Source of the DNA: an uncultured Lachnospiraceae bacterium
Lineage (GTDB): Bacteria > Bacillota > Clostridia > Lachnospirales > Lachnospiraceae
DNA length: 41,831 nucleotides
Direction of reading: 5' to 3'
Assembly: GCA_947174495.1 (NCBI GenBank)
Contig: CAMWJC010000023.1
Span: 1-41,831, forward strand
Positions 10,831 through 39,806 of the stretch are shown in pieces. Position 1 is the first letter of the stretch; each line of letters starts with the position of its first letter. The position numbers and the translations under genes were made by a program. The notes under the pieces were generated by a model that did not search any database, was not told the DNA's origin, and saw only the letters and a list, made by a program, of their open reading frames with translations.

Positions 10831-11210
10831 TTAACGTTTAGCTGAGTTTCAAATAGAAATATGAAAACCCGGATAGAATCAAATTCTACGTCGCCACGCT
10901 CGATAAAGCGTTCGCGAATTGGCTCCTTTAGAATTTGATTCAATCCGGGTTTTAACTTATTGGCTAACGTGAAACTAGCTAATGACTCCACTACAGTCGC
11001 TCAATCTACTATCTGGCTAATTGCTAGAGAGTGGACCATTTCACCTTAGTGAAGTTCTCAGTTGGGCTTTGCGTCATTCAACAATCCAGCTCCGATGAAA
11101 AGAAATCCTTGAGGAAACAATTCGCGAACGCTTTATCGAGCGTGTTGACGAGAGGCTTTCTTTTCATCGGAGCGGATGTCTCGCATATGCATACCCCAGC
11201 TAAACGTTAA
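10831..11210 (+). repeat. Structured intergenic repeat, copy 1 (380 bp)
   Basis: Bounded by perfect 14-bp terminal inverted repeats, TTAACGTTTAGCTG (10831-10844) and its complement (11197-11210). Hairpin A has 25-nt arms at 10864-10888 and 10929-10953 with one mismatch and ends in GGGTTTT. Hairpin B has 17-bp perfect arms at 11089-11105 and 11157-11173. A central region can also pair (AATGAC 10981 with GTCATT 11073; TCCACT 10987 with AGTGGA 11030). A 26-nt motif caps both hairpins, at 10895-10920 and in reverse complement at 11119-11144. No coding frame is preserved among copies and no target-site duplication is visible. It could be a MITE-like mobile element or a structured noncoding RNA. 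It fills most of 10817-11363. Confidence 0.9.
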
Positions 11211-11271
11211 ATCAACTCTATAGCCACTGAAATGAAAATGTCTTGATTGCTCCCAAGGATAAAAAAACACT

Positions 11272-11300
11272 TTGCGGATAAAATATTTTAAGGATATAAT
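11272..11300 (+). promoter_or_regulatory. Promoter of the D,D-carboxypeptidase gene
   Basis: TTGCGG (11272-11277) and TATAAT (11295-11300) are 17 bp apart, just downstream of repeat copy 1 and 63 bp before the start codon. Confidence 0.72.
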
Positions 11301-11363
11301 AAATAAGAGTATGATTAAGAGCACCGGATCTAAAACGGTTGAAAGTATAAAGGAGCTTTATAA

Positions 11364-12608
11364 GTGGATTTGAAGGATAATATGGAAGAAGAAGCCCGGG
11401 CGCGGCGCATGCAGAGAATAAAGAAGATGCAGCAAGAGAAGCAAAGGCAGATACTGCTGCGCAGAATAGTCAAACATGCAGCGCCGTATGCGGCAGCTGT
11501 TGCGTTGCTGATTCTTGTAGTGTGGACGGGAATGGAACTGGCCGGGCACAGAAAAGAAGAGGACAGAGCAGAAATTGACCATTTGGGTCAGGAAGGAATA
11601 ATGCATGATGACGACAGCATTACTGTAAATGACAATAATGTCATAAACCCGGAAACCATTTCGCCTGATCCGGCAGAACAGGGGATTGTGACAGCAGAAT
11701 CTTCCCAGACGGATCAAAAGGCTGAAATTGTGGAAAATCAAAAGCATTATCAGGCGAAGGAAACGAAGGATACCCTCAGTCTTGGGGATGAGATTATCAG
11801 CAAATATGCAATAATGATTGATCTGGACAGTGACAGCATCCTTGCGGAAAAGGGTTCAAAAGAAATCATCAGTCCGGCATCTATGACGAAGATTTTAACC
11901 GTGCTTGTGGCAGCCGAGCGTTTGGGAGATCTGGAGAGATTGGATGAAACTTTTACAATAACACTGGAAATTACGGATTACGGTTATGTTCATAAGTGCA
12001 GCAGTGCAGGCTTTTTGGCGGATGAGACAGTAACTGTGCGTGATCTGTTTTATGGGACGATCCTTCCTTCCGGAGCAGAGGCAGCAGTGGCGTTGGCTAC
12101 TTATATAGCGGGCAGCCAGGAGGCGTTTGTAGAACTGATGAATGAAAAGCTGGATCAGATGGGTCTTTCAGACACAGCACACATGACAAATTGTGTGGGA
12201 ATTTATGACGAAGACCATTATTGCACAATTTATGATATTGCCATGATTCTGGAAGCAGCCATTGATAATGACTTGTGCAGGGAAGTTTTAGCCGCTCATA
12301 CGTACCAAACATCAAAGACAGAGCAGCATCCGGACGGAATTATAATTTCCAACTGGTTTTTGCGCCGGATCGAGGATCATGATACTGGTGGTGAGGTGGT
12401 CTGCGGTAAGACGGGATTTGTGGCACAGTCAAATAGCTGCGCGGCAAGCTATGGAGTTGACCATGATGGAAATGAATACATCTGTGTGACAGCAGACGCA
12501 ATCAACCAGTTTAAATGTATTAACGATCATGTAGCACTTTACAAGCAGTTTTCCAAGGGGAAAAGCCAGACGGGAAGCGAAGAGGATATAGATAAAGAAG
12601 CAGGATGA
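11364..12608 (+). CDS. D-alanyl-D-alanine carboxypeptidase (peptidase S11, DacA/DacF-like)
   Basis: A 414-residue membrane-anchored penicillin-binding protein that trims the terminal D-Ala of peptidoglycan stem peptides. A basic, helical N-terminus (1-37, many Arg/Lys/Gln) precedes one TM helix (about 39-58) and an acidic linker to about 145; the catalytic domain faces outside. The SxxK motif is S173-M-T-K176, the second motif is S236-G-A rather than the usual SxN, and KTG is at 349-351. N-terminal anchoring with a long linker differs from classical DacA, which has a signal peptide and a C-terminal amphipathic anchor; the beta-sheet tail domain is also absent. The start is GTG 11364 with AAGGAG 8 bases upstream. 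It lies alone, followed by its own terminator. Confidence 0.9.
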   Translation: MDLKDNMEEEARARRMQRIKKMQQEKQRQILLRRIVKHAAPYAAAVALLILVVWTGMELAGHRKEEDRAEIDHLGQEGIMHDDDSITVNDNNVINPETISPDPAEQGIVTAESSQTDQKAEIVENQKHYQAKETKDTLSLGDEIISKYAIMIDLDSDSILAEKGSKEIISPASMTKILTVLVAAERLGDLERLDETFTITLEITDYGYVHKCSSAGFLADETVTVRDLFYGTILPSGAEAAVALATYIAGSQEAFVELMNEKLDQMGLSDTAHMTNCVGIYDEDHYCTIYDIAMILEAAIDNDLCREVLAAHTYQTSKTEQHPDGIIISNWFLRRIEDHDTGGEVVCGKTGFVAQSNSCAASYGVDHDGNEYICVTADAINQFKCINDHVALYKQFSKGKSQTGSEEDIDKEAG

Positions 12609-12611
12609 AGG

Positions 12612-12656
12612 AAGAACTGTCGTATAGCATAAAACTATACCGGCGGTTCTTTTTTA
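12612..12656 (+). terminator. Terminator after the carboxypeptidase gene
   Basis: AGAACTG pairs with CGGTTCT around an inner ATAG/CTAT hairpin, followed by a T-run. It begins four bases after the stop codon. Confidence 0.88.
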
Positions 12657-12703
12657 GGTGATAGAAAGCTATTGTTATTTACGGATACAGACCGGCCTGG
12701 TGA

Positions 12704-12762
12704 CTCAAATGTGAAACACGTTTACAAAACGGGAAAGTCGGACTGTAATCGACTCATTTGAG
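12704..12762 (+). other. Unassigned nested inverted repeat
   Basis: CTCAAATG (12704-12711) is complementary to CATTTGAG (12755-12762), and AGTCG (12736-12740) to CGACT (12750-12754), so the two 3' arms are contiguous and the 5' arms are split by 24 nt. It lies between the carboxypeptidase terminator and the chemoreceptor promoter, with no T-run after it. No known riboswitch motif was recognised. Confidence 0.45.
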
Positions 12763-12831
12763 GAAGGTGCTTGCGAATTATACCGTAAAAAGTGTAAATT
12801 GTACCAATAAGAAAATTCACTAACAATATTT

Positions 12832-12840
12832 TGATATAAT
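12832..12840 (+). promoter_or_regulatory. Extended -10 promoter of the chemoreceptor gene
   Basis: TGATATAAT provides an extended -10 (TG-N-TATAAT, hexamer at 12835-12840). No good -35 is seen 17 bp upstream, which is tolerable for extended -10 promoters. It lies 49 bp before the GTG start. Confidence 0.6.
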
Positions 12841-12888
12841 AATAAAGTTGCAGTAAAAATACAAGTGAGGATGAAAAGAGGTGCGATT

Positions 12889-14889
12889 GTGTTAAAAACA
12901 ATTAAAGGAAGACTTACTGCTAGTGTAATCGGCATTGTTGTGGGAAGTATTCTTCTGACTACAGCAGGAATTATTGTGATTGCCGGAAGGCGTATGATCG
13001 CAGATCAGACACAGGCTTTGCAGCTTAATGCTGATAAATATGCGGAGGAAATCAATACATGGATCGAAAATGAGAAGATGTTAGCAGACGGAACTGCAGA
13101 TAGCGTAGGAGCCGGTAAAAACACAGGCGACGAATTTGTTCAAGCCATCGTGGATGCGCATGCGGCAGGTAGAGAAGAACTTTTGAATCTGTATTGCGGT
13201 ACCAGTGACGGAAGATTTATTCAGTCCAACAGGGAGGCAGAGATACCGGAAGGATATAATCCAGTGGAACGCGGCTGGTATCAGAAGGCTGCCAAAGAGG
13301 GAACTGTTATCGTGACGGATCCTTATTGGGATGTGCTTACAAACCAAATGTGTACTACGATTGCAGCACCGGTTTACATAAATGATGAATTGGCAGGAGT
13401 CATTGGACTGGATGTGACGCTGGGAACTGTAACAGATCTGACAAAAAGCATTCATTATGACGATGGCGTATATGGCTTTCTGGCGGACAGCAGCGGGCAG
13501 TATGTAGCGCATGAAAATAAAGAATACGAGCCTACGGAAAATGCGGCGGTTGCGGTTGTAGATGTGATTCCGGGGCTGGAGGGAATGCTTCAGGGAATTG
13601 AAAGCGGGGTTAAGAAGCTTACCGATTATGATGAAAGTACTTGTTATTTTGCAGTATCCGGAATTGAGGGCAGCAATTGGAAGCTGGGAGTTGTGGTACC
13701 GGCTTCTAATGTCACAGCATCTCTTGTTGCCATGATCGTGATGGTAATGGTGATTGCACTTGTGATTATTGGATTGGTTGCATTATTTATGGCAGGACTC
13801 ATCGGAAAGATGCTGGCACCGATACAGATGCTGAAGCAGTTTGCTTCCGGAGATTTCTCAGAAAATGCGATTAGTGAAAAAGCAATTCCCAGTGAATACA
13901 AAAATGAAACAGAGCAGATTAAGACAGCTACAACGGAAGTTAAGCAACAGATCAGGGGAATCATTTTGAATACAAAGCAGGAAGCAGAGAGTATCAGTAC
14001 AATTGCTGAGGGTACATCTGCCAAAATGACAGTTTTAAACGGAAATATATCTGATATCTCCGGACTGGTCAGTGCGGTTATGGATCAGACCACGCAGGCA
14101 AAAGAACTGACCGAGAGTATAAGGAATAACGGACAGGAGTTAGGAGGCGCGATAGAAAGCGTGGTAAGAAAAGCAGGGGAAGCAGCTAAACAGTCCGGTA
14201 ATATTATGGAAAAGGCAGGACGGCTGCACGAAAATTCACGGCAGTCTGCCGGAGAATCGGTTGCGCTTTATCAGGAGACCAGAGAAGATCTGGAAAAGGC
14301 AATTGCAGACAGCCGGAAGGTACATGAAATTGATACTTTGACCGAAGAAATACTTTCTATTAGCTCCCAGACCAATCTTTTGGCGTTAAATGCCTCCATA
14401 GAAGCAGCGAGGGCGGGTGAAGCCGGAAAAGGTTTTGCTGTTGTTGCAGAGGAGATCAGGCAGTTGGCAGATGATTCAAGACAGGCAGTGGATAAGATAC
14501 GAAAGGTGACAGAGAGTGTGATAAAGAATGTTGCTTTTCTGTCAGAAAGTTCCGTAAAACTTTTAGATTTTATGAATGAAAAGGTCATGGAAGATTATAA
14601 GGGAATGACAGAGCTTGCAGAAATGTATCAGAAGGATGCTGCATTTTATAATGATATTTCCGGAGAGCTGGGGACGTCCTCCCGGGAAATGAGCGCAAGT
14701 ATGGACGAAATCAATGAATCGATTGCTGCTATTACAGAACTTGTAGGTGAGATCGCCGATTCCGTACAGAGCATGGAAAACTCGGCAGAAAATTCAAATG
14801 AGAATTCGGAAGCGGTAATGAAGCAGATGGAAGAGTTATTCCACTTAAGCGGACTTTTGAATCGGACAGTGGCATCCTTTAAAGTATAA
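12889..14889 (+). CDS. Methyl-accepting chemotaxis protein with dCache sensor
   Basis: A 666-residue transmembrane receptor. TM1 is about 9-33, an extracellular dCache domain about 35-270, TM2 about 275-304, then a HAMP-like segment and a coiled-coil signalling domain. The conserved hairpin tip ([20 protein letters not shown]) is at about 489-508 and would contact CheA/CheW. In the Cache domain, RGWYQKA, TDPYWD and GVIGLDVTL resemble the Arg-Trp-Tyr...Tyr...Asp pattern of amino-acid or amine-binding dCache domains; the ligand is inference. GTG 12889 is preferred because GAGGTG precedes it by 6 bases, giving MLKTIKGRL; upstream in-frame starts at 12865 and 12871 lack a spaced ribosome binding site. 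A two-component system follows after 43 bp, suggesting joint expression. Confidence 0.94.
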
Positions 14890-14932
14890 AATGTCAGAAG
14901 GGCAGTGTTGACAAAGGAGGCGAAGGTAAGAT

Positions 14933-16252
14933 ATGTTAGGTGGTTCTGTATATATAGCAATACTCCGGTTTGCGCTCAATCTTGCGGGGACAAGTCTTTT
15001 GTTTTTTCTGATGAGCGAATCCAGGTTTGGAGTAAAGAAAACGGTAGTCTGCTGCGTAAGCTTTAGTGTAATTGCCGTTGCGCTGGGGAGTATATGGTAT
15101 GTAATTGACTGGGAAAGCTGTGTAAAGATGGTAGCCCTTGTGTTGTATATATGTTTTGCTGTTTTTGCGGTTTTCATGAGTGCAGACCCTATCTTTTTGT
15201 CAGTATATAAGCTGGCGTTGACATTCTATTTATTGGCAGTATTCCTTGTAGGAGGAATTGAGGTTTCTGTTCTTTTTTTCCAGAGAAACGTGTGGGCAGA
15301 TATTGTTACAAGAATTCTGCTGATTGTGATGATGACTCTATTTATTAACAAAGTAATAAAGAAACCGATTCGGGAATTTGCCTGTTATGTTGAGAAGGAA
15401 CTGGACCGGGTCAGCGCTGCCGTTATGACGATCAGCATTTTGTTCGGAATCGGGTTTATTTTGAATCCAAATATTAAAGAGATGACGCCATACCGACTTT
15501 TTCAGATTGCCATGAACTTTTTTCTTACAGGCGCACTACAGCTTTTGGTGTTCCGGCTTTATACGCACATCGGCAAAGAACGGGAATATCAGAAGGAGAA
15601 CCAGCTTATGAAGATGAATCACAGGCTGCTTGAGAGAAACGTGGAGATTATGGAGGAGTCGGTGAAGGAAGGCAGGAGAATCCGGCATGATGCCAGACAT
15701 CATAATGCAGTTATGGCAGAGTACGCCAGAAGGGGACAGAATGAAGAATTGTTACAATATTTAAAGGAATATGAGAGGGAGATGGACGAAAACGTAGAAG
15801 AGACCATCTGCGCTAATATTGCAGTCAACAATCTTCTTGCTGCATATACAAGAAAGGCGAGGAAGGAACAGATCAAAGTCACTATGGATGTGGAGCTGGG
15901 CAGAAATCTTACGATACCTAATATTGATCTGGTAACAATACTTGCCAATGCCTATGAGAATGCCATTTATGGCTGCATTGAAGTGAAAAAGCAGTCGCCG
16001 GAGAGAGAATGTTTTATTCACCTTATGATTAAGAGAAAGAAAAATAAGCTGGTCATTTGCTGCAGCAACACCTGCAGGCTGGAAACGGAACTGAAGGACG
16101 GACAGCCGAAACCGGAATTTACCGGTGGCATTGGTGTGCTGAGTATCATTAAAACAGCGGAAAACTTTGATGGGGAATATGATTTTAAGAATGATAACGG
16201 GGTATTTGTGTTCCGGCTGATTATGAAAATTCCCATGGCAGAGACTGTGTAA
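14933..16252 (+). CDS. AgrC-like sensor histidine kinase (GHKL)
   Basis: A 439-residue membrane kinase with six hydrophobic segments in residues 5-210, a short coiled coil (about 215-248) and a cytoplasmic kinase core. The phospho-acceptor is H252 in RRIRHDARHH. The ATP-binding domain has the N box at N343 (ANAYENAI) and a G box GGIGVLSI (398-405). This is the polytopic sensor plus GHKL ATPase layout of AgrC/ComD-type kinases that usually sense peptides; no peptide precursor gene lies next to it, so the signal is unknown. ATG 14933 has AAGGAGG about 12 bases upstream. The partner regulator starts 39 bp downstream. Confidence 0.92.
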   Translation: MLGGSVYIAILRFALNLAGTSLLFFLMSESRFGVKKTVVCCVSFSVIAVALGSIWYVIDWESCVKMVALVLYICFAVFAVFMSADPIFLSVYKLALTFYLLAVFLVGGIEVSVLFFQRNVWADIVTRILLIVMMTLFINKVIKKPIREFACYVEKELDRVSAAVMTISILFGIGFILNPNIKEMTPYRLFQIAMNFFLTGALQLLVFRLYTHIGKEREYQKENQLMKMNHRLLERNVEIMEESVKEGRRIRHDARHHNAVMAEYARRGQNEELLQYLKEYEREMDENVEETICANIAVNNLLAAYTRKARKEQIKVTMDVELGRNLTIPNIDLVTILANAYENAIYGCIEVKKQSPERECFIHLMIKRKKNKLVICCSNTCRLETELKDGQPKPEFTGGIGVLSIIKTAENFDGEYDFKNDNGVFVFRLIMKIPMAETV

Positions 16253-16291
16253 AGTGTGGTATGATATATTTAGGTGGAAGAGGTGCCGTTC

Positions 16292-20064: not shown

Positions 20065-20092
20065 CATTGGTATCAGCTCATTGGTATCAGTT
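20065..20092 (+). repeat. Two tandem 14-bp repeats
   Basis: CATTGGTATCAGCT is followed directly by CATTGGTATCAGTT, just upstream of the helicase ribosome binding site. It could be a recent slippage duplication or a double protein-binding site. Confidence 0.6.
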
Positions 20093-20111
20093 CATGGCGG
20101 AGGGAAAAGAG

Positions 20112-23100
20112 ATGAATTTTAAAACATCAAAGCAAGCGGAAGAGAATTATTTGAAAAAAACTCTTGAGGTAGTGAAATGCAATGTGGAAAATTATGGCCG
20201 GGAAGTGGCGCGCATGCAGGAGGATATTGATGAAATGCTGGCCCATTATCACGACAATGATGTAGAAGTGTACACGATCCTGAGTAATACGGTAACCATG
20301 CATGATCATATGAAGTGGGCGCTGATTAGAAACGAAAAGGCTCTGAATAAGCCCTATTTCGGTCGAATTATTTTTCATGACAAGGCGCTTGATAAGGAGG
20401 AGTCTCTTTATATCGGAAAAGGAGGAATTTCTGCCGACACAACGCATCAGATTGTGGTGGACTGGCGTGCGCCAGTGGCCAACGCTTACTATGAGAACAG
20501 CCTGGGAGAATGCAGCTACCCAGCGCCCGGTGGTGAAGAAATAGAAATTGACCTGAAACTGAAACGCACCTATGAGATTGAGAACGGGCAGCTTAAGGAT
20601 TACTTTGACAGTGAAGTGGTGGCAAATGACGATCTCCTTACCAGATATCTTGCAAAGAACAAACAGGCGGTACTAAACGAGATTGTTGCCACAATCCAGA
20701 AGGAGCAGAATGAAATTATCCGGAAATCTCCTTATCATAATATTATTGTGCAGGGAGTGGCCGGTTCTGGTAAGACTACGGTAGCCATGCACAGAATTTC
20801 CTTTATTCTTTATAATTACGCGGAAAGATTCCGGCCGGATGATTTTTATATTGTGGGCAGTAATCGGATTTTGCTTGATTATATCACAAGTGTGCTTCCG
20901 GACCTTGATGTGCATGGTATTCGTCAGATGACCATGGAACAGCTTTTTGTCCGCCTGTTGTATGAAGACTGGGATGAACAAAAGTACTCCATAAAAGGTA
21001 CAGATCCAGGAGACCCAAAAGGCAGTATAAAGGGACGGTCACAGTGGTTTCGGGATTTGGAAGAGTATTGCAGGAAAATAGAGCGGGAGGCAATCTCTAC
21101 AGAATCTGTTTATTTAAATCCAAGGCAGTTTGTAGAGGGATTTCGGAATGGAAAGACCGGTGTGTTTGATGAGACTGCCGGAGAGACAATAAATCCGAAG
21201 AGCCTTGTCTGTCTGGTGGATGGAGCGGTGGTGGAAGATTATCTGCGGGAAAATCCTTCGATATCCGTTCAGAATAAAATTGATATGCTTAATCAGCGTC
21301 TGACCGGGAAAATTAAGGACGAGTTTCTGGGGAAGGGGATCAAGTACACAGAGGCGGAGCGGAAGGCAATTTTAAAGGCTTATCGGGGAAGATACGGAGG
21401 AAGAGAGTGGAAACGCTCTATTTACGAAATGTATCAGGAATTCCTGATGAAGCAGGCGATAAAAGGATATGAGGTGGAGATCCCCGATAAGGAGTTCGAT
21501 GTTTATGATCTGGCAGCGCTAGCTTATCTATATAAGAGGATCAAGGAAAAAGAGGTGATCAGCGAAGCGCATCATATTGTCATTGATGAAGCGCAGGATT
21601 TTGGGATGATGGCATATCATGTTTTGAAATTCTGCATTTATAGCTGTACTTATACGGTTATGGGGGATGTTTCCCAGAACATTCATTTTGGCTTTGGGCT
21701 AAATGACTGGGAGGAGCTGAAAAAGCTGCTATTGCCGGATCCAATGGACAGTTTCGGACTGCTGAAAAAGAGCTATCGAAACACCGTAGAAATATCGAAT
21801 TTTGCCACAGATATTCTTCATCACGGAAGTTTTTCCGTTTATCCGGCTGAGCCCATTATCCGGCATGGAGATCCGGTCAGGGTAGAGCAGATTTTGGGAC
21901 GAAAGGAACTGATCATGGAAGCGGCCGAAATCTGTCAAAGCTGGCAGCAAAAGGGACTGGATACGATTGCCGTCATCTGTCGGGATAAACAGAGTGCAGA
22001 GGCAGCAACAAAAGAACTTTCGGAGTATGTCGAACTGATGGAAAGCAACTTGGAAAAAGCGGTGTTTGGAAGTGGAATCATGGTGCTTCCGGTGGAATAT
22101 ACCAAGGGGTTAGAATTTGATGCAGTATTGATCTTAGATCCCACAAGACAGGAGTACCCAACAGAGGATGGACATGCAAAGCTGCTTTATGTGGCAGCAA
22201 CTCGTGCGCTTCATGAATTGTGTGTGCTTCACAGCGGAAACCTTACGGGACTGATTGCAGATCCGATTCCCCAGAGAGCAGTGCCGACAGAGCCGAAAGA
22301 AGAAATACTTTCCGGGGAAAGCGCAGTGACGGAACAGGGCGGGAAAGCTCCGAATAAAACTTTGAGCAAGGCTCCTATTTTTGCTGAGAAATTGCCAGAC
22401 GAAGCTAGAATACAGGATCAGGAAGAAAAAAGGAGCAACGACGAACCCAAGCGAAACAAACGGCCGGTAGCGATCAGCAGGAAGGCGGCTTCTTTTTCTA
22501 TAGCAACACCGGAGGATAAAAAGCCATATATCGCCCGGAAGATCGGAAAGGCATCTGACGATTTCAAGGAGGAAGCGGATGGGCCGGAGGATTTGCGCCA
22601 AAAACAGCCCGCCTATAAGGATAAAAGAAGTGTACAGGAGAAAAAGTCTGGAAGCGAAGTTTTATTTGGAGATATGCCGGTCAATGAAAAACTTCGTCCG
22701 GCAGGGCATTCTAAAATTGATCTGGCAGTCCGCTGGGCGGAAAAAAGACCGGACGGGCTTTATTTGCAGAGTCGTTACGGGACGCTACGGCTTTGTCCAG
22801 TGAGCAGCAGAATTATCCGGGTCACCTTTGCAAAGGGTGGAAGCATTGCGCAGGGAGTACATTCAAAGATAACTGCGGACAAAGAAGATAAGGCATGGAT
22901 GTATAAATCTATTGGTAATACGGTGGAACTTTTGACGGATGAATTGTGTCTGCAGGTGGATAAGGGGACCGGTGCAATCCGCTATATGACACGGGATAAA
23001 AAATTGCTGCTTGCCGAAAGGAGCCGGGAATGCCGTCAGATAGAGAGCAGTCCGAAGGGCAAAATGCGTATATGGACCTTTTTTGAATGGCAGAAAGGAG

Positions 23101-23375
23101 AGAATCTCTATGCGGTAAGTCAAAAGGAAAGCGGAATGAAGCTGAGGGGAACCGCCAGATATATTTCACAAGCGGAAGAATTGCCGTTTGTTTTGTCGGA
23201 TAAAGGATATGGAATTTTGGTGGCAGCAGATTCACCTGTGATCTGTTGCGATATTCCAGCCTATGGTTCTTACCTGTATGCGGATAATGAGATGCAGGCA
23301 GATTTTTATTTCCTCGCAGGAAAGAACCAAAGGGATGTTTTAAGTGAATATGAAAGTCTTTGCAATAGGAGTTAA
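20112..23375 (+). CDS. HelD-like superfamily 1 helicase fused to a GH31 N-terminal-like domain
   Basis: The protein has 1087 residues. Residues 1-720 are a HelD/UvrD-type ATPase: N-terminal coiled-coil arm, HelD-type motifs YFGRIIF and DWRAPVANAYY, Walker A GVAGSGKTT (215-223), Walker B VIDEAQDFG (D492-E493), GDVSQ, EYTKGLEFD and a final motif YVAATRA near 693. HelD proteins bind RNA polymerase and recycle stalled complexes. Residues about 721-865 form a Lys/Glu-rich, probably disordered linker. Residues about 868-1087 resemble the mutarotase-like N-domain of GH31 glycosidases (RIIRVTF, DKGTGAIRYM, ELPFVLSDKGYGILV, DFYFLAG), but the protein stops where the catalytic barrel would begin. That fusion is not something I know. 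ATG 20112 has GGAGGG upstream; earlier in-frame starts are less likely. The domain could serve carbohydrate or protein binding; catalysis is not expected. Confidence 0.88.
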   Translation: MNFKTSKQAEENYLKKTLEVVKCNVENYGREVARMQEDIDEMLAHYHDNDVEVYTILSNTVTMHDHMKWALIRNEKALNKPYFGRIIFHDKALDKEESLYIGKGGISADTTHQIVVDWRAPVANAYYENSLGECSYPAPGGEEIEIDLKLKRTYEIENGQLKDYFDSEVVANDDLLTRYLAKNKQAVLNEIVATIQKEQNEIIRKSPYHNIIVQGVAGSGKTTVAMHRISFILYNYAERFRPDDFYIVGSNRILLDYITSVLPDLDVHGIRQMTMEQLFVRLLYEDWDEQKYSIKGTDPGDPKGSIKGRSQWFRDLEEYCRKIEREAISTESVYLNPRQFVEGFRNGKTGVFDETAGETINPKSLVCLVDGAVVEDYLRENPSISVQNKIDMLNQRLTGKIKDEFLGKGIKYTEAERKAILKAYRGRYGGREWKRSIYEMYQEFLMKQAIKGYEVEIPDKEFDVYDLAALAYLYKRIKEKEVISEAHHIVIDEAQDFGMMAYHVLKFCIYSCTYTVMGDVSQNIHFGFGLNDWEELKKLLLPDPMDSFGLLKKSYRNTVEISNFATDILHHGSFSVYPAEPIIRHGDPVRVEQILGRKELIMEAAEICQSWQQKGLDTIAVICRDKQSAEAATKELSEYVELMESNLEKAVFGSGIMVLPVEYTKGLEFDAVLILDPTRQEYPTEDGHAKLLYVAATRALHELCVLHSGNLTGLIADPIPQRAVPTEPKEEILSGESAVTEQGGKAPNKTLSKAPIFAEKLPDEARIQDQEEKRSNDEPKRNKRPVAISRKAASFSIATPEDKKPYIARKIGKASDDFKEEADGPEDLRQKQPAYKDKRSVQEKKSGSEVLFGDMPVNEKLRPAGHSKIDLAVRWAEKRPDGLYLQSRYGTLRLCPVSSRIIRVTFAKGGSIAQGVHSKITADKEDKAWMYKSIGNTVELLTDELCLQVDKGTGAIRYMTRDKKLLLAERSRECRQIESSPKGKMRIWTFFEWQKGENLYAVSQKESGMKLRGTARYISQAEELPFVLSDKGYGILVAADSPVICCDIPAYGSYLYADNEMQADFYFLAGKNQRDVLSEYESLCNRS

Positions 23376-23430: not shown

Positions 23431-23808
23431 TTAACGTTTAACTTAGGGATGCATATGCAGAACATCCGCTCCGATTAAAATAAATCCTTTCGTCAACACG
23501 CTCGATAAAGCGTTCGCGAATTGTTTCCTCAAGGATTTATTTTAATTGGAGCTGGGGTATTGAATGACGCATAGCTCAACTGGAACTCCATTAAGGCGAA
23601 ATGATTCGCGCTTTAGCAGTCAGACAGTGGATTAAGCGACTATAGTGGAGTCATCAGATGGTTTTTCGTCAGCTAAAAAACTAACTCGGATAAGAAATAA
23701 ATTCTTAAGGAAGCAATTCGCGAACGCTTTATCGAGCGTGCTGACGAAGAATTTATTTCTTATCCGAGTGGTCGTTTAGATATTACATGTAAACCAACTA
23801 AACGTCAA
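23431..23808 (-). repeat. Structured intergenic repeat, copy 2 (378 bp, inverted)
   Basis: This copy lies in the opposite orientation to copies 1 and 3. The left end is TTAACGTTTAACTT and the right end CAACTAAACGTCAA, so its terminal repeats are slightly decayed. The hairpin B equivalent has 22-nt arms at 23468-23489 and 23531-23552 with a single G-T pair; the hairpin A equivalent has 23-bp perfect arms at 23684-23706 and 23747-23769. Both carry the same 26-nt loop motif as copy 1 (23497-23522 and, reversed, 23715-23740). Arm sequences differ from copy 1 at several positions but stay paired. It starts 55 bp after the helicase stop and fills most of 23376-23881. Confidence 0.88.
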
Positions 23809-31875: not shown

Positions 31876-31890
31876 AAAAACCTCCGTAGT

Positions 31891-34082: not shown

Positions 34083-34125
34083 AATAGTTACCTCACTTTA
34101 CTTTTTAAAATGTATCGACTGTTTT

Positions 34126-34154: not shown

Positions 34155-34159
34155 TGGCG

Positions 34160-34202: not shown

Positions 34203-34208
34203 ACTTCC

Positions 34209-34251: not shown

Positions 34252-34334
34252 TACGGCTAAGAATAAGAAATGCAAAGATTTGAACAACCACATATCAAAG
34301 TGTATTGGACAAAGAATGGAAATGGAGAAACAGT

Positions 34335-35171
34335 ATGAGTTATAAAATTGTGGCAGACAGTTGTTGTGAATTTCCGGAAGAGTACAGGGAAGATCCCAGA
34401 TTTCAGAGGGTTCCGCTTGAGCTTATGGTGGAGGATGAGGTGATCATCGATGACGAGACCTTTGATCAGGCATCTTTTTTGAAAAAAGTTGCAGATTCGC
34501 CCAGGTGCCCTAAATCCTCCTGCCCATCACCTGAAAAGTTTATGGAGGCTTACCAGACAGATGAGGAGAATGTATTTGTTTTTACGCTGTCCTCAAAACT
34601 GAGCGGCAGCTATAACAGTGCTGAACTTGGTAAAAAGCTTTACCATGAAAAATACGGAGAAAAAAATATTTATGTTTGTGATTCGGAGTCTGCGAGCTGC
34701 GGAGAGACACAGCTTGCGCTGAAAGCGGTCCAATGGTCGGAGGAGGGGCTGCCCTTTCAGGAAATCTGTCAGAAGCTTGCCAATTATCGGGATCATATGA
34801 ATACTTATTTTGTATTAAATAATCTGGAAACGCTGCGGAAAAACGGAAGGCTTTCGCTGGTTAAGGCACTGGTGGCGTCCACTTTAAGCATAAAACCGGT
34901 TATGGGAGCCACGAAAGGTGAGATCATTCAGCTCGGTCAGGCAATCGGGATTAAGAAGGCGCTTGCAAAGATGGCGGAGATCGTGGCAAAGGAAGCAGTT
35001 CATCCGGAGGAAAAAATGCTGATGATCACTCACTGTAACTGCAAAGAGCGCGCGGAGAGCGTGAAGAAGATGATACTGGAGAAAGTCAGAGTAAAAGGGG
35101 TTATCGTGATGGACACCAGAGGGGTCAGCAGCATGTATGCCAATGATGGCGGGGTTATCGTGACATTGTAA
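34335..35171 (+). CDS. DegV-family fatty-acid-binding protein
   Basis: A 278-residue protein of the DegV/FakB fold, which binds one fatty acid and presents it to a fatty acid kinase in some Gram-positives. Motifs include the N-terminal YKIVADSCCEFPEEY, KSSCPSPEKF, LSSKLSGSYNSAEL (acid-binding Ser/Ser) and LRKNGRLS. ATG 34335 with AATGGAG upstream is chosen; an in-frame ATG at 34305 lacks a site and would extend past the conserved start. A terminator follows directly. Confidence 0.94.
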   Translation: MSYKIVADSCCEFPEEYREDPRFQRVPLELMVEDEVIIDDETFDQASFLKKVADSPRCPKSSCPSPEKFMEAYQTDEENVFVFTLSSKLSGSYNSAELGKKLYHEKYGEKNIYVCDSESASCGETQLALKAVQWSEEGLPFQEICQKLANYRDHMNTYFVLNNLETLRKNGRLSLVKALVASTLSIKPVMGATKGEIIQLGQAIGIKKALAKMAEIVAKEAVHPEEKMLMITHCNCKERAESVKKMILEKVRVKGVIVMDTRGVSSMYANDGGVIVTL

Positions 35172-35177
35172 ATAGGA

Positions 35178-35223
35178 TTTGGGCATCAAAACTTGAGAGT
35201 CAAGAGTTGATGCCCAAATTTTC
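35178..35223 (+). terminator. Terminator after degV
   Basis: TTTGGGCATCAA (35178-35189) pairs perfectly with TTGATGCCCAAA (35207-35218), followed by TTTTC. Confidence 0.9.
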
Positions 35224-35261
35224 AATAGGGAGTGTAAATTAGCGAAGTTATTTGCACCTTT

Positions 35262-35840
35262 TCAGGGTGTTTGTTTTGAAAAATCTCCTATTTTGCCCAG
35301 CAGGTTTCCAACACTATGATACATACCCGAATAAACTATAGGGTCAAATTTGGTGAGATCAATATCAAAAGTACCATCACATGCCAGCTCTTCATCCACT
35401 TGAACATTTTTTATCTGGCAGAAAAAGGTAGTAGATTCCCCTGTTTCAACTGATCGAACAACTTCACATTCATATACCCATCGGCTTGCACCAAGAATAG
35501 GGACATCCACAACTTCGCCTCTGCAAACATTGTATGGGATTCCATCCTTCATACTGTCTTTTGCGTGGTGCAGACCAAAATAGTCCACAAGTTCAAGCAT
35601 ATCCGTACTAGCCAGATTTACACTTAAAATACCTGTTCTGATAACATTCTGTTTAGTCATTTTCGTACCATACATACTAATGACCAACAAATAATCCTGA
35701 TCCTTCTCACAGGTAACGCTGATCCAGGTAATTGGGGCAAAATTATGTGATCCATCCTCATTGTTTGTGCCAATAATAAATGTTGGTTGAACGCACATTG
35801 AAAAATGAGTTCCTAATGATTTTTTCTTTATATTTTTCAC
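35262..35840 (-). CDS. Flavin reductase-like FMN-binding protein
   Basis: A 192-residue protein of the flavin reductase-like split-barrel family (PTFIIGTNNEDGSHNFAPITWIS; LSVNLAS; PYNVCRGEVVDVPILGASRWVYECEV), which binds FMN and uses NAD(P)H or serves as a redox partner. The GTG at 35840 has TAGGAGG 7 bases upstream and is preferred; an in-frame ATG at 35882 falls inside the end of the preceding gene and lacks a spaced site. It is the last gene of the marR operon. Confidence 0.88.
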   Translation of the reverse strand: MKNIKKKSLGTHFSMCVQPTFIIGTNNEDGSHNFAPITWISVTCEKDQDYLLVISMYGTKMTKQNVIRTGILSVNLASTDMLELVDYFGLHHAKDSMKDGIPYNVCRGEVVDVPILGASRWVYECEVVRSVETGESTTFFCQIKNVQVDEELACDGTFDIDLTKFDPIVYSGMYHSVGNLLGKIGDFSKQTP

Positions 35841-35859
35841 TTCTTTTCCTCCTAAAATA

Positions 35860-36285
35860 TTAATCAATATTATCCATATCAAAGCTTTCTTTCTTCAAAT
35901 CATAATACTGTCTTCCTCTTAGTGCTGTAAATTTCAGGACACAGTAATCGGGATCAGTCACACCGCCGGGATAATACAAGGTATCACCGGTTTGCCATAT
36001 TTCTTTCTTGATTTCCGGATCTTGCAGAACTTCCATTGTTCCGACAAGCATGATCCCTTCATAGCGGAAACGTCCCCGATGGTAAAAATAGATGCTGGCT
36101 TTGGGGTTGTCTATGTATTGCTCGGTTCGCATAGAAGAGGTATTGGTGGAAAAATAAAAGCAGTTCCCTTTTATTTTGCGGGGAGTAAACATTGCTTTTA
36201 TATTGGGGAAACCATCCTCATCCACTGATGCAATAAATGCCGTTTTCTGTTTTTGGATAAAGTCAAATAAATGTTCTCTTGTCAT
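35860..36285 (-). CDS. Pyridoxamine 5'-phosphate oxidase-like flavin protein
   Basis: A 141-residue split-barrel protein (TREHLFDFIQKQKTAFIASVD..PNIKAMF; KGNCFYFSTNTSS; ASIYFYH). Members bind FMN, F420 or haem and reduce varied substrates; the specific activity is unknown. AAGGAGG precedes the ATG, inside the tail of marR. It lies between marR and a flavin reductase gene, so the operon is probably a redox-stress or drug-detoxification unit. Confidence 0.88.
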   Translation of the reverse strand: MTREHLFDFIQKQKTAFIASVDEDGFPNIKAMFTPRKIKGNCFYFSTNTSSMRTEQYIDNPKASIYFYHRGRFRYEGIMLVGTMEVLQDPEIKKEIWQTGDTLYYPGGVTDPDYCVLKFTALRGRQYYDLKKESFDMDNID

Positions 36286-36286
36286 A

Positions 36287-36727
36287 TTAAAAATCCTCCT
36301 TTTCTGCAGTTGTCAGTGTGTTTAATATTCTGTCAAGGTATTTTTCAAATTGTTGCTGTTCTTCAAGTGAAAATCCCTGATAGAACAGGATATTCATTTG
36401 CTGGGATACCTCCTCATACCTGCTTTGCAGGGATTTGGCGTAATCGGTCAGGGAAATGATGGTCTGGCGGCGGTTCGTGGGATTGATATTCCGCTCCAGC
36501 ATTCCTTTTTGAACCATGCCATCCACCACGATGGAAACTGTATTAACGGCAAGTGATGTCTGGCGGCTGATTTCACTGACAGTGAGATGGTCGGATTTCC
36601 ACAGGATGAATAGAATGCGACCCTGACCGCCGCTGATCTGAATATCATTTTGGGCAAGGAGCCGCTCAAAAATCCGGTCCTGAAGCTGTTTAATCTGCGT
36701 AATATAAAATCCACCTTTTGTTTCCAA
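36287..36727 (-). CDS. MarR-family transcriptional regulator
   Basis: A 146-residue winged-helix regulator. The DNA-binding part covers about 30-100 (LTVSEISRQTSLAVNTVSIVVDGMVQKGMLER, then the wing NPTNRRQTIISLT), flanked by dimerisation helices. The TTG at 36727 has GAGGTG 7 bases upstream; an upstream TTG at 36733 is too close to that site. It leads the operon with two flavin proteins and is divergent from a tetR gene, so it probably controls its own promoter. Confidence 0.9.
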   Translation of the reverse strand: METKGGFYITQIKQLQDRIFERLLAQNDIQISGGQGRILFILWKSDHLTVSEISRQTSLAVNTVSIVVDGMVQKGMLERNINPTNRRQTIISLTDYAKSLQSRYEEVSQQMNILFYQGFSLEEQQQFEKYLDRILNTLTTAEKEDF

Positions 36728-36776
36728 TATCAAACACCTCGAATCATGTTAGAACATTTCTATATAGAATAATTGA

Positions 36777-36805
36777 AGTATGACATAAATAATGAAGAAT
36801 GTCAA
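36777..36805 (-). promoter_or_regulatory. Candidate marR promoter
   Basis: On the minus strand, TTGACA (36805-36800) is followed after 17 bp by CATACT (36782-36777), a 4/6 match to TATAAT. It faces the tetR promoter, and the two -35 boxes are 24 bp apart. Confidence 0.55.
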
Positions 36806-36829
36806 ATATTTTTTTATCCCATGACGCTA

Positions 36830-36858
36830 TTGACAATTAATATTGTATCATTTACAAT
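36830..36858 (+). promoter_or_regulatory. Promoter of the tetR-ABC operon
   Basis: TTGACA (36830-36835) and TACAAT (36853-36858) are 17 bp apart. The spacer holds ACAAT and ATTGT arms (36833-36846), a plausible site for the TetR protein. Confidence 0.8.
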
Positions 36859-36905
36859 TTAAAACAGATGTTGCAAAACACTTGTTTTATATAAAAGGAG
36901 ATAAT

Positions 36906-37523
36906 ATGCCGCCAAAAGCTAAGTTCACAAAAGATGAAATTATTGAAACAGCATTAGATATTGTCAGGGAAGAAGGGTTTGAAGCATTGACAGCCAGGGC
37001 GCTTGGGGCGAAGCTTGGCAGTTCCGCAAGACCAATCTTTACAGTGTTTCAAAGTATGGATGAGGTACAGCAGGAGGTCATGAAAGCTGCCAGAGCTCTG
37101 TATGACAGTTATATTGCACAGGCGTTATCGGGGGAGCGGGCATATGAGCATGCCTTTAAAAGTGTAGGAACCCAGTATATCCTTTTTGCATGCAAAGAAC
37201 CGAAGCTGTTTCAGCTTTTGTTTATGAAAGAGAAAGATAATCCACCGGATTTTGCAGGTGTTTTACCTTTGATTGATGAAAATTATGAGTTAATTCTTGG
37301 TTCGGTCCGCGATGATTACAAGATAAGCGATGCATTGGCGTTAAGGCTGTATAAGCATTTGTGGGTATATACACATGGTATTGCATCTTTGTGTGCTACC
37401 GGTATGTGTCGGTTTAGCGGAGAAGAGATCAGTGAAATGGTAACTGATGTGTTCTCTTCTTTGCTGGCGAAGTTTGCAGCAGAAAAAAGAGATGAGGAGA
37501 GAAAAGAAAGGGGAGAACAATGA
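36906..37523 (+). CDS. TetR/AcrR-family regulator with WHG C-terminal domain
   Basis: A 205-residue repressor. The HTH covers about 8-55 (TKDEIIETALDIVREEGFEALTARALGAKLGSSARPIFTVF), and the C-terminal ligand domain contains the LWVYTHGIASL segment typical of the WHG subfamily. ATG 36906 with AAAGGAG upstream is chosen; an in-frame ATG at 36843 lies inside the promoter. Its stop overlaps the start of the ABC ATPase gene (ATGA), so it is translationally coupled and likely represses the transporter. Confidence 0.92.
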   Translation: MPPKAKFTKDEIIETALDIVREEGFEALTARALGAKLGSSARPIFTVFQSMDEVQQEVMKAARALYDSYIAQALSGERAYEHAFKSVGTQYILFACKEPKLFQLLFMKEKDNPPDFAGVLPLIDENYELILGSVRDDYKISDALALRLYKHLWVYTHGIASLCATGMCRFSGEEISEMVTDVFSSLLAKFAAEKRDEERKERGEQ

Positions 37524-38212
37524 TTGAAGTAAAAAGTGTTCAAAAGTCGTACGGCAGCGGTGAAAGCCGTTTTCTTGTATTAAAGGGAATCAGCTTGAAA
37601 GTAAATACCGGAGATTTTGTAGTTATTTTAGGAGCTTCCGGTTCCGGAAAATCCACATTATTAAATATAATGTCAGGGCTGGAAAGTCCGGATCAGGGAG
37701 CGGTCCTTTATGACGAAACAGATATAACAAAGCTGTCTGATTCGGAAAGAACGAAGTTTAGGAAGGATAATATCGGTTTCATTTTTCAGCAGTATTATCT
37801 GCTTCCTAACATGACTGTGGAAAAAAATGTAAAAATGGGTGCGGATCTGGCGAAAAATACGGATTACAAGACCATGCTTGAGGCAGTGGGACTTGGGGAG
37901 AAAATGAAGAAATATCCCAGCGAGCTTTCGGGCGGAGAACAGCAGAGGGTTTCCGTGGCAAGAGCACTGGCAAAAAAGCCCAGAGTGTTGTTTTTGGACG
38001 AACCTACAGGAGCTCTTGATGAACAGACCGGACGGCAGGTGCTTGATTATATCTGTAAATTACATAAGGAATACGGATTCACTATTGTGATGGTAACACA
38101 TAATCAGAATATTGCGGAAATGGCAGGTATGGTGATTAGGATGAACAGTGGGAACATTTCAGAAATCTACACCAATTCTGTAACAAAAAATGCTTATGAG
38201 ATAGGATGGTGA
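37520..38212 (+). CDS. ABC transporter ATPase, MacB/LolD type
   Basis: A 230-residue ATPase. Walker A is GASGSGKST, the Q loop [13 protein letters not shown], the signature [10 protein letters not shown], Walker [13 protein letters not shown] and the switch His VTHN. These belong to the FtsX-permease class (mechanotransmission) of ABC systems, used in resistance to peptide antibiotics or in lipoprotein and toxin export. It overlaps tetR by 4 bp and the permease gene by 7 bp. Confidence 0.95.
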
Positions 38213-39375
38213 TTGCTGTGGTTGTAGGGATAAAAGATGCGGCAAAGCTTACCGGAATATTTATAATCGTCTGTTGTGCTGTGCTTGTATGCACACTGTT
38301 TTTGAATTTTAATATTGATATTGCAGGAATCCGGGATGAAATTACTTCCCAGCAGGTGATGCTTTTTTATGAAGCGCAGGTGTCGACGGCAAAAGTGGTC
38401 AGTTCTCTGTGCGGAGGCTGTCTTTTGATCACATCAGTGATCATGTTAATCTTTTATATTAAGCATTATGTTGATACCCACAAAAAGGAGCTTGGTATTT
38501 TAAAGGCAATAGGTTATTCTGGTGGAAAGATTGCAGTTAACTTTTGGGTATTTGGAAGCAGTGTTTTCCTTGGAGCATTAGCAGGTTTTGCGGGAGCGTG
38601 GATGATGATGTCTGCATTTTATGAAGTGCAGAATGAGGATAAGATTCTTCCGGCGATGAGTCCTCATTTCCATCCGATTCTCTTTTTGTCATTGGTGATA
38701 CTGCCTGCAGTTCTGTTCGGGATTATTTCAATTTTTTATTCGTTTTTAAAATTAAAAGCCCCGGTACTTAGATTGTTGAAGGAAAGCTGGCAAATACCGA
38801 CGGGGAAAGAAAAACATAGGGAGAAAAGAGAAGAAAAAGGCGGAGAGCGTCCTTTTCTGGATGAACTGAAGAGAAGTACCCTTCGTGATAAGAAAACACT
38901 GGTGTTCTTTATTATTTTTGCTTCCTTTTGTTTTGCCTCTATGACTCAGATGTCTTTTAGCATGGATGAACTGGCAAGCGCCATGATGGGGATCATGATT
39001 ATGCTGATTGGTATCGTTTTGGCCTGCACAACTCTTTTTCTGGCAATTACAACCGTGATAAACGGTAATAAGAAGACCATTGCCATGATGCGTGTATTCG
39101 GATATTCCCAGAAGCAGTGCTGCCAGGCTTTGCTTGGAGGATACCGGCCTATGGGGTACATTGGTTTTGCAATCGGAACTATCTATCAATATGTCATACT
39201 GAAAGTTGCGGTGTATGTCATTTTCAAAGACATTGAGGGAATGCCGGAATATGGGTTCGATTTTAAGGCAATGCTAATAGCTCTTGCAGCGTTTCTGGTA
39301 ATTTATGAAACTGTGATGTATCTTTATTCGGAGAAGTTGAAAAAGATTTCCATTAAGGAGGTTATGTTGGAGTAA
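38206..39375 (+). CDS. Compact FtsX-type ABC permease
   Basis: A 389-residue membrane protein with two FtsX-like halves. Hydrophobic segments occur at about 15-35, 65-85, 110-135, 160-185, 225-245, 255-285, 325-345 and 360-380. KKELGILKAIGYSGGKI and KKTIAMMRVFGYSQKQ are the cytoplasmic coupling segments that follow the second helix of each half. The large extracellular MacB domain expected between the first two helices is reduced to about 30 residues, so this is a small member. The start at 38206 overlaps the ATPase gene. The first base of repeat copy 3 is two bases beyond the stop codon. Confidence 0.87.
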   Translation: MVIAVVVGIKDAAKLTGIFIIVCCAVLVCTLFLNFNIDIAGIRDEITSQQVMLFYEAQVSTAKVVSSLCGGCLLITSVIMLIFYIKHYVDTHKKELGILKAIGYSGGKIAVNFWVFGSSVFLGALAGFAGAWMMMSAFYEVQNEDKILPAMSPHFHPILFLSLVILPAVLFGIISIFYSFLKLKAPVLRLLKESWQIPTGKEKHREKREEKGGERPFLDELKRSTLRDKKTLVFFIIFASFCFASMTQMSFSMDELASAMMGIMIMLIGIVLACTTLFLAITTVINGNKKTIAMMRVFGYSQKQCCQALLGGYRPMGYIGFAIGTIYQYVILKVAVYVIFKDIEGMPEYGFDFKAMLIALAAFLVIYETVMYLYSEKLKKISIKEVMLE

Positions 39376-39376
39376 A

Positions 39377-39806
39377 TTAACGTTTAGCTGGGTTACAGAG
39401 ATCAATATAAAACTCGGATAGAATCAAATTCTACGTCGCCACACTTCCGTTCTACAAAAAGCGTAATGGTGCTAAGCTCGTTAAGAACCTTGCTAAGCAC
39501 CAACGCTTTTTGAAGGGCTCCTTTAGAATTTGAGTTCTATCCGAGTTTTAAGTTATTGGCTGACGGAAAACCAGTTAATGACTCCACTATAGTTGCCCAG
39601 TCTACTGCTCGGCTGTCTGCCAAAAAGTGGACCATTTAATATTAGCTGAGCTGCCAGTTGGGATTTGCGTTATTCGATAACCCAGCTCAGATGAAAAGAA
39701 ATCCTTGAGGAAACAATTCGCGAACGCTTTATCGAGCGTGTTGACGAGAGGCTTTCTTTTCATCTGAGCGGATGTCTCGCATATGCATACCCCAGCTAAA
39801 CGGTAA
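39377..39806 (+). repeat. Structured intergenic repeat, copy 3 (430 bp, expanded)
   Basis: The left terminal repeat is TTAACGTTTAGCTG (39377-39390); the right end is CAGCTAAACGGTAA (39793-39806) with one mismatch. Hairpin A arms are 39409-39433 and 39524-39549. Hairpin B arms are 39685-39701 and 39753-39769 (17 bp, perfect), with the reversed 26-nt loop motif at 39715-39740. The hairpin A loop motif is replaced by a longer nested hairpin. Paired changes relative to copy 1: C-G to T-A in hairpin A (39414/39544) and C-G to A-T in hairpin B (39689/39765). It fills most of 39376-39912. Confidence 0.9.
39456..39511 (+). repeat. Nested hairpin replacing the loop of copy 3
   Basis: Arms 39456-39477 and 39492-39511: AAAAAGCGT pairs with ACGCTTTTT (9 bp), then after an AA bulge TGGTGCTAAGC pairs with GCTAAGCACCA with one mismatch. 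It stands in the place of the 26-nt motif seen at the other five hairpins. Confidence 0.82.

What the first reader, a model, noticed from the sequence alone, without database searches (positions are those of the whole stretch)
10831..39806. Three copies of an unrecognised structured repeat with 14-bp terminal inverted repeats
Copies at 10831-11210, 23431-23808 (inverted) and 39377-39806 share ends (TTAACGTTTAGCTG type), two long hairpins and a central paired region. They occupy the three largest gaps in the window. Having three in 42 kb suggests many more in the genome. It may be a nonautonomous mobile element, a family of structured RNAs, or both.
Basis: seen in the sequence. Interest (0 to 1): 0.85.

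Follow-up and report, generated by a model that had tools for sequence, protein, structure and literature searches.

The report
Jumping DNA hairpins overwriting each other
Three repeats in this gut-type bacterium are copies of a short gene-less element, likely a transposon moved by another element's enzyme, whose two long hairpins change over evolution as a DNA shape would rather than as an RNA would; the hairpin core turns up in at least six genera of one bacterial family, and at the same chromosomal sites in a sister species the copies are mostly not each other's closest relatives, likely because recombination swaps them.

Summary
Confirmed. The three copies belong to a family with at least 40 copies, some truncated, in this Lachnospiraceae-type MAG. 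Each has two long hairpins in opposite orientation inside 14-18 bp inverted ends. The hairpin core (~90 nt, complete in copy 3) is found in 26 of 37 genomes of the genus, in 8 of 16 sampled genomes of the family, and in none of 375 others of the class.

The core covaries strongly (33 of 44 pairs) but shows no G-U preference: 14 G-T against 16 A-C. SRP RNA of the same genus gives 153 against 1, or 19 against 1 without fixed wobble columns. So the shape looks kept as DNA, not RNA.

In sister species the core sits between GTTACTTTTCAC ends with 8-bp target duplications. Those ends are shared with a transposon bearing an IS66-type transposase. In the window species the ends differ, no duplication is detectable and no mobilising enzyme was found.

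At 21 orthologous sites in sister species G032 the copy best matches its counterpart at 1 and is inverted at 7: likely overwriting. No Rfam match. The core's function is inferred only.

The parts
10831..11210 (+). Element copy 1 (380 bp; hairpin 1 with short apex A)
10831..10844 (+). Left terminal inverted repeat of copy 1 (TTAACGTTTAGCTG)
11197..11210 (-). Right terminal inverted repeat of copy 1
10868..10949 (+). Hairpin 1 of copy 1, core with internal deletion (form A)
   Evidence: model R1, 46.3 bits
11089..11173 (-). Hairpin 2 of copy 1, same core in opposite orientation (form A)
   Evidence: model R1, 35.4 bits
23431..23808 (-). Element copy 2 (378 bp; form A)
23685..23768 (-). Hairpin 1 of copy 2
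   Evidence: model R1, 46.8 bits
23468..23553 (+). Hairpin 2 of copy 2 (read from the sequence; not listed by R1 at E 0.01)
   Evidence: absent from the table
39377..39806 (+). Element copy 3 (430 bp; hairpin 1 with full core, form B)
39413..39545 (+). Hairpin 1 of copy 3: full ~90-nt conserved core on a ~20-bp stem
   Evidence: model R1, 140.7 bits
39685..39769 (-). Hairpin 2 of copy 3 (form A, opposite orientation)
   Evidence: model R1, 35.2 bits
39373..39375 (+). Stop codon TAA of the upstream FtsX-type permease gene, supplied by the outer edge of the element's inverted repeat (TAAATTAACG)

Best explanation
The three repeats are copies of a gene-less, MITE-like DNA element bounded by inverted ends and built on two long hairpins that appear to be kept as DNA shapes; it is likely moved in trans by a transposase that recognises the ends, and after insertion the copies are likely overwritten and flipped by recombination with one another. 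SHOWN: multicopy, fixed ends, two sites empty in relatives, strand-symmetric covariation, a core found in six or more genera of one family. Also SHOWN: 8-bp target duplications and IS66-type ends in sister species, and contents at orthologous sites that are mostly not each other's closest relatives and sometimes inverted. INFERRED: an IS66-family transposase (probably ISBst12 group) mobilises the GTTACTTTTCAC-ended relatives in trans. INFERRED: the window's lineage carries the same hairpins on other, probably older ends whose mobilising enzyme is lost or not yet found. INFERRED: homologous recombination, bounded by the ends and hairpin stems, replaces copies in either orientation. INFERRED, weakest step: the core is kept because a host or element protein recognises the extruded hairpin in single-stranded or cruciform DNA.
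For: Copy number, at least 40. R1 core in 26 of 37 genus genomes, and in 8 of 16 family against 0 of 375 other class genomes. 33 of 44 pairs with compensatory change. G-T 14 against A-C 16 in 1579 cells, while the SRP control gives 153 against 1 in 989, or 19 against 1 in 839 without its five fixed wobble pairs. 8-bp duplication: best of 66 offset/length combinations, z 6.7; 7 of 40 elements perfect, while no mismatched left-right pairing reached 8 of 8. A 91-bp core-less relative also has a perfect duplication. A 10.9-kb transposon with 23-bp perfect ends of the same type carries an IS66 transposase. The same ends lie beside IS66 transposase matches in two more genomes. Published IS66 members have 8-bp repeats (passages). 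The window-type end also bounds a second, different mini-element of ~315 bp, as expected of ends that a transposase reads. Orthologous contents are best-matched at 1 of 21 sites and inverted at 7, with ends kept and middle replaced at one pair and a milder mosaic at another. Empty sites.
Against: No 8-bp (or other) duplication was found for 33 window-species copies (max z 2.6 of 132 combinations). The one IS66 transposase match of the own genome has no matching ends, and no transposase was seen in 10 ORFs near orphan ends. IS66 was absent from G020 and G028 although both carry many copies, and the G006-type transposase was found in only 6 of 37 genus genomes. Outside the genus I could not show inverted ends: 15 of 19 true pairs against 212 of 342 mismatched pairs had such an inverted repeat. 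There, single folds show a mild strand asymmetry (G-U 19 of 878 on +, 49 of 906 on -). The genomes are MAGs, so part of the replacement signal could be assembly error at repeats; only 6 sites are full-length with both flanks on one contig. The empty sites do not give a clean junction.
Confidence: 0.68

Rival explanations
1. The element is a family of structured noncoding RNAs that also happens to be mobile.
For: Very stable predicted folds and rich covariation. Location mostly downstream of genes (20 tandem, 10 convergent, 2 divergent of 32), as for transcribed REPs. In an RNAalifold fold of 47 whole copies G-T was 197 cells against 19 A-C.
Against: The excess comes mainly from a weak 6-bp central helix and one loop pair; without the five pairs where G-T is the majority it is 23 against 17 over 48 pairs. 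In the core alignment no pair has a G-T majority and the count is 14 against 16; SRP RNA of the same genus, treated alike, gives 19 against 1. The minus strand folds better than the plus strand (-60.5 against -51.7). The two hairpins of one element carry the core in opposite senses. No Rfam match.
Confidence: 0.1
2. The window copies are a bidirectional transcription terminator or 3'-end insulator family that happens to have spread, and selection at gene 3' ends keeps both the structure and the sites.
For: 26 element ends lie between -5 and +8 bp of the end of a frame of at least 100 codons, 11 of them using the TAA of the inverted repeat. 10 of 32 classified copies sit between convergent genes. 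Sites persist while contents change. One weak terminator-like site lies inside copy 3 (39615-39632).
Against: No terminator-like site in copies 1 and 2, although that scan allows loops of only 3-8 bases and so cannot judge the long hairpins. A conserved ~90-nt apical core is far more than a terminator needs. Lack of G-U preference argues against selection on RNA. The ends contain stop codons, so frame ends at the element are partly expected.
Confidence: 0.15
3. The window-lineage elements are Tc1/IS630-type MITEs with TA target duplication (TA|AATTAACG...CGTTAATT|TA).
For: TAAA...TTTA flanks on most copies.
Against: No TA-specific signal can be separated from the conserved end by shuffling. 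The two empty sites do not show a bare TA. No IS630-type partner was looked for by family in this genome.
Confidence: 0.2
4. The mismatch between orthologous copies is an assembly artefact of repeats in metagenome bins.
For: Many G032 contigs end inside the element.
Against: Six full-length sites lie within single contigs, with 89-94% flank identity. In one pair both end segments match the ortholog best (rank 1 of 32) while the middle does not (L044/L070). One site (L025) is a normal ortholog in the same assembly.
Confidence: 0.2

Closest known systems
MITEs (nonautonomous IS derivatives), e.g. MITEPsy1 (PMC3189936, passages)
   Same: Short, no coding, inverted ends, many copies; in sister species also ends shared with an IS-type transposon and a target duplication.
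   Different: Carries a structure conserved across genera of a bacterial family; 380-450 bp rather than the usual under 300; no target duplication detectable in the window species; contents at fixed sites are mostly replaced.
IS66 family, ISBst12 group (e.g. ISDge4, PMC12898284, passages)
   Same: 8-bp target repeats, ends beginning GTNAC, single transposase ORF; the GTTACTTTTCAC-ended relatives share ends with an IS66 transposon.
   Different: The window copies have other ends (TAAATTAACGTTTAGC) and no detectable 8-bp duplication.
REP/BIME/REPIN elements (PMC3733652)
   Same: Intergenic palindromic repeats, inverted pairs of units, mostly downstream of genes, rarely between divergent genes.
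   Different: REPs are 20-40 bp; that paper uses frequent G-T stem pairs as a sign of transcription, which is not seen here; Y1/RAYT genes do not track the core (17 of 26 core-bearing and 4 of 11 core-less genus genomes have a Y1_Tnp match; the own genome has none).
Insertion sequence inversion by recombination between terminal repeats (Wolbachia ISWpi1, PMC3004938)
   Same: Inverted resident copies at orthologous sites; 23-bp ends suffice there.
   Different: Here most copies also seem replaced in content, not only inverted.
BOX/RUP and Correia elements (recalled, not tested)
   Same: Structured intergenic repeats in bacteria.
   Different: No sequence relation tested.

Membership tests
MITE | Short, multicopy, no coding capacity | tested here: met
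   377-448 bp full-length copies; at least 40 copies; no ORF of 80 aa or more within a window copy
MITE | Terminal inverted repeats | tested here: met
   14-18 bp
MITE | Target site duplication | tested here: not met
   window species, 33 copies: none, so the window copies are called MITE-like, not filed as MITEs; sister species with the same core: 8 bp
MITE | Autonomous partner with the same ends | tested here: inconclusive
   own genome: 25 orphan ends, 20 regions fetched, 10 ORFs from 10 of them scanned, no transposase, no convincing 0.7-2.9 kb pair; sister species G006: found for the GTTACTTTTCAC ends
IS66-derived MITE (window copies) | IS66-type ends and 8-bp duplication | tested here: not met
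   ends differ
IS66-derived MITE (relatives in G006, G035, G020) | IS66-type ends and 8-bp duplication | tested here: met
Structured noncoding RNA | Rfam match | tested here: not met
Structured noncoding RNA | Strand-asymmetric covariation with G-U pairs | tested here: not met
Structured noncoding RNA | Transcription | not testable with these tools
   no RNA-seq held
REP/REPIN | 20-40 bp unit | tested here: not met
   unit about 135 positions with its stem
REP/REPIN | Associated Y1 (RAYT) transposase | tested here: not met
   PF01797 absent from the own genome and from 9 of 26 core-bearing genomes
Integron attC site | R/L boxes and array of gene cassettes | not tested
   copies are dispersed, one per site; boxes not scanned

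The most novel reading that the evidence does not exclude
A DNA hairpin under selection across Lachnospiraceae is read by an undiscovered DNA-structure-binding factor. It rides on different transposon ends in different lineages, and in the window's lineage it occupies fixed 'sockets' at gene 3' ends whose contents are continually exchanged and flipped between copies.
Probability: 0.3. Interest if true: 0.85.

Novelty: new variant of a known kind. Interest (0 to 1): 0.62.

Why it matters
Conserved hairpins in bacterial intergenic DNA are usually read as RNA. Here a simple control (G-T against A-C in pairs, beside a real RNA of the same genus) says that the shape is kept as DNA. If a protein recognises it, this is a new nucleic-acid signal in gut bacteria. 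The fixed-site, changing-content behaviour also makes gene conversion between bacterial mini-elements directly measurable.

Tried and rejected
Rfam at gathering score on the window and at E 1 on three loci: nothing. Plasmid and phage records: nothing, for copy 1 and for the single-hairpin form. Viral contigs: no exact match to two core patterns.

Y1/RAYT transposase as mobiliser: rejected, it does not track the core. The own-genome IS66 as mobiliser of the window copies: rejected, no matching ends. An 8-bp or other duplication for the window copies: none; for G028 copies only 7 pairs of ends were measurable and nothing stood out (max z 2.4). Inverted ends outside the genus: not distinguishable from background. 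A ~1.2-kb candidate pair of ends in G020 (C52) lies over open frames that do not look like an insertion sequence (no family search was run on them). Orphan regions of the own genome with candidate pairs of ends 0.7-2.9 kb apart, at up to 3 mismatches, have poorly matching ends, and the ORFs scanned there are ordinary genes or without a family match.

The RNA reading was considered first and dropped after the SRP control (30 of the 34 genomes with a match). The control is not matched for divergence (mean identity 0.90 against 0.71). Of its 153 G-T cells 134 lie in five fixed wobble pairs; without them it is 19 G-T against 1 A-C, a smaller but still one-sided excess. I left the odds as they were. 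Single-sequence folds show some G-U on both strands (A2: 54 of 1779 pairs on +, 47 of 1823 on -; other genera, 17 of the 19 loci: 19 of 878 and 49 of 906), below SRP (164 of 1023).

For the orthology count I kept 21 of the 24 G000 sites with a flank match. I dropped L001 and L007 (flank identity 76-80%) and L014 (only short repeat-like hits). In four of the 21 the flank match stops 10-28 bp short of the junction. L030 (a 160-bp remnant) is counted among the 21 but not among the inverted. For the duplication count 62 loci were given and 40 had both ends measurable. For the window species 33 of 40 copies were used; truncated copies and those with an unlocated end were dropped.

Papers seen: PMC3733652 (abstract, CGTC section, passages), PMC3004938 (abstract, discussion), PMC12898284, PMC3281130, PMC3189936, PMC9769881 and PMC13155455 (passages only). 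Searches are search listings. Searches for Lachnospiraceae or IS66 together with MITE or repeat terms showed no listing that describes this element; the library is partial and ISfinder is not held.
Full report
OBSERVATION. The three copies are real, at the stated places, with 14-bp ends, two hairpins and a shared centre. Copy 1 folds with z -10.2 on the plus strand and -12.2 on the minus strand against 100 shuffles. The window is one contig of a 2.89-Mb, 78%-complete bin. Its sister genomes are recorded as Lachnospiraceae MAGs: G032 corresponds to Mgla_MAG_18-bin_8 and G028 to NALB_7863_6, by matching contig lengths. The window genome itself is unnamed.

COPY NUMBER AND ANATOMY. With copy 1 as query, 40 separate copies were scored in the own genome (40 of 74 candidates). 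Full-length ones measure 377-448 bp; a few are truncated or run into a contig end. In most the inverted end continues outward as TAAA before TTAACG and TTTA after CGTTAA. Hairpin 1 carries either a short apex (A) or a long one (B); hairpin 2 carries the short apex in opposite sense. With the whole copy as DNA query only 3 of 60 genomes, own genome included, match.

THE CORE IS FOUND ACROSS THE FAMILY. The long apex of copy 3 matched many other species of the genus on its own. An alignment of 36 such hairpins gave a covariance model R1. R1 finds 26 of 37 genus genomes, with up to 64 matches in one (90 candidates scored per genome). In an even sample of 391 genomes of the class it finds 8, in 6 genera, all within the same family (8 of 16 sampled there, own genome included; 0 of 375 elsewhere; stricter filters). 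Other species of the genus carry the core either as a single hairpin (~193 bp element) or as two full hairpins head to head (~400-430 bp). Conserved unpaired features include an AA bulge, an A.A mismatch in CTAAG/CTAAG and a small side hairpin (read by eye).

DNA, NOT RNA. In the core alignment 33 of 44 pairs show compensatory change. Of 1579 pair cells 1515 are Watson-Crick, 14 G-T, 16 A-C and 34 other. As control I took SRP RNA from 30 genomes of the same genus: 834 Watson-Crick, 153 G-T, 1 A-C, 1 other, in 989 cells; its minus strand folds far worse (-17.0 against -36.6), while the core's minus strand folds better (-60.5 against -51.7). Most of the control's G-T cells sit in five fixed wobble pairs; without them it is 19 against 1 in 839 cells, while the core has no such fixed pair. 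Over 47 whole copies a raw count gave 197 G-T and 19 A-C, but the excess sits mainly in a weak central 6-bp helix and one loop pair; without the five pairs where G-T is the majority it is 23 and 17 over 48 pairs. In other genera single folds are mildly asymmetric (19 of 878 on +, 49 of 906 on -, 17 hairpins). Strand symmetry suggests that the pairing is maintained at DNA level, by selection on a DNA hairpin or cruciform, or by templated repair of one arm from the other; I cannot separate these two.

MOBILITY IN SISTER SPECIES. Elements of G006, G035 and G020 end in GTTACTTTTCAC. Of 62 loci given (four of them from G060 and G002), 40 had both ends at up to 3 mismatches each. The best-supported duplication is exactly 8 bp directly outside the ends (z 6.7, best of 66 combinations tried). 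Seven are perfect and 12 match at 6 or more of 8, while no mismatched left-right pairing reached 8 (first seen with 25 copies). A 91-bp derivative without the core is also flanked by a perfect duplication, so the core is probably not needed for transposition, unless it was lost after insertion. In G006 a 10.9-kb transposon has 23-bp perfect ends GTTACTTTTCACACCCACGCCAG and a shared 8-9 bp flank. It carries a transposase gene matching DDE_Tnp_IS66 above the curated cut-off (E 1.7e-15) and NCBIfam's IS66 model below its cut-off (134 of 180 bits). Of 7 loci found with this transposase in 6 of 37 genomes, those of G006, G026 and G014 (the last broken by stop codons) have GTTACTTTTCAC within about 180 bp of the matched stretch; the G024 locus holds an IS with GTAACTATTCAG ends and a perfect 8-bp duplication. 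IS66 members are reported with 8-bp repeats (PMC3281130 table passage; ISDge4, PMC12898284 passages).

THE WINDOW'S LINEAGE. Here the ends are different, 33 copies show no duplication at any offset, and the only IS66 match has no such ends. Ten ORFs near orphan ends include no transposase. Yet of 12 sites tested with joined flanks, two are empty in relatives: the L004 site in G032 and the L037 site in G032 and G028, so insertion or loss has happened since divergence. The same end also bounds a second, different mini-element: TTAACGTTTAGC followed by an AGGAAGGGGAC-type sequence at four orphan places, two of them with a similar partner end 315-316 bp away. Of 40 copies, 26 ends lie between -5 and +8 bp of the end of a frame of at least 100 codons, and 11 use the TAA of the inverted repeat as stop codon. 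In copy 3 the G028 orthologue of the gene ends at the same residue. Context: 20 tandem, 10 convergent, 2 divergent of 32 classifiable. Some of this follows from stop codons contained in the ends.

COPIES OVERWRITE EACH OTHER. At 21 sites with orthologous flanks (85-96% identity), the G032 copy has its own G000 counterpart as best match at 1 site only (L025), and it is inverted relative to the flanks at 7, copy 3 among them (copy 3). Of five full-length co-oriented pairs, one is a normal ortholog (L025), one keeps the ortholog-like ends but not the middle (L044), one is a milder mosaic (L040), and two look replaced throughout (L016, L026). This fits recombination between copies in either orientation. 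TIR-TIR inversion of insertion sequences is known from Wolbachia (2 of 22 loci, PMC3004938). The caveat is that both genomes are metagenome bins.

VERDICT. A mobile, MITE-like element: a new variant of a known kind, because its conserved payload is a hairpin kept at DNA level and shared by several genera of a family. What recognises the hairpin is unknown; my inferred answer is a structure-specific DNA-binding factor. A passive hairpin perfected by template switching remains possible, but it would not explain the conserved unpaired bases.

Noticed in passing
L333 (G006:C5:9900-21500), 307-11208: 10.9-kb transposon with IS66-type ends carrying a MobA/MobL relaxase-type gene, an Imm1-like gene, an HTH regulator, an ASCH-domain gene and a GNAT acetyltransferase beside the IS66 transposase.
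   Followed up: partly
L421 (G024), 1426-3249: Complete-looking IS66-type insertion sequence with GTAACTATTCAG ends and a perfect 8-bp duplication AGGAATTA.
   Followed up: partly
L174:501-815 and L180:552-867; ends also in L171 and L175 (own genome): A second mini-element of ~315 bp sharing the window-type end TTAACGTTTAGC but with different insides (AGGAAGGGGAC-type).
   Followed up: partly
flank of L014 (G000:C34, left of the element): Another dispersed repeat (GCATCATAGTTGCATCA-type) that matches many places in G032 and G028 (query about 1828-1893).
   Followed up: no
G000:C16:44722-44835 and G000:C27:4061-4235 (L170, L173): Pairs of the window-type ends only about 110 and 171 bp apart: miniature derivatives of the element.
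   Followed up: partly
window 39816-39870: Directly downstream of copy 3: a short terminator-like hairpin with a T run (39816-39830), then a 12-of-12 sigma-70 consensus promoter (39842-39870) before the GntR/ABC operon.
   Followed up: no
window 20067-23375: 1102-aa protein with UvrD-type helicase domains and a weak C-terminal match to a galactose-mutarotase-like glycosyl hydrolase domain, just under the cut-off; an odd pairing.
   Followed up: no
L082 (JAGBTH010000071.1, Kiritimatiellae MAG): One exact hit to the short-core pattern; R1 finds nothing there at E 0.01, so probably chance or contamination.
   Followed up: partly
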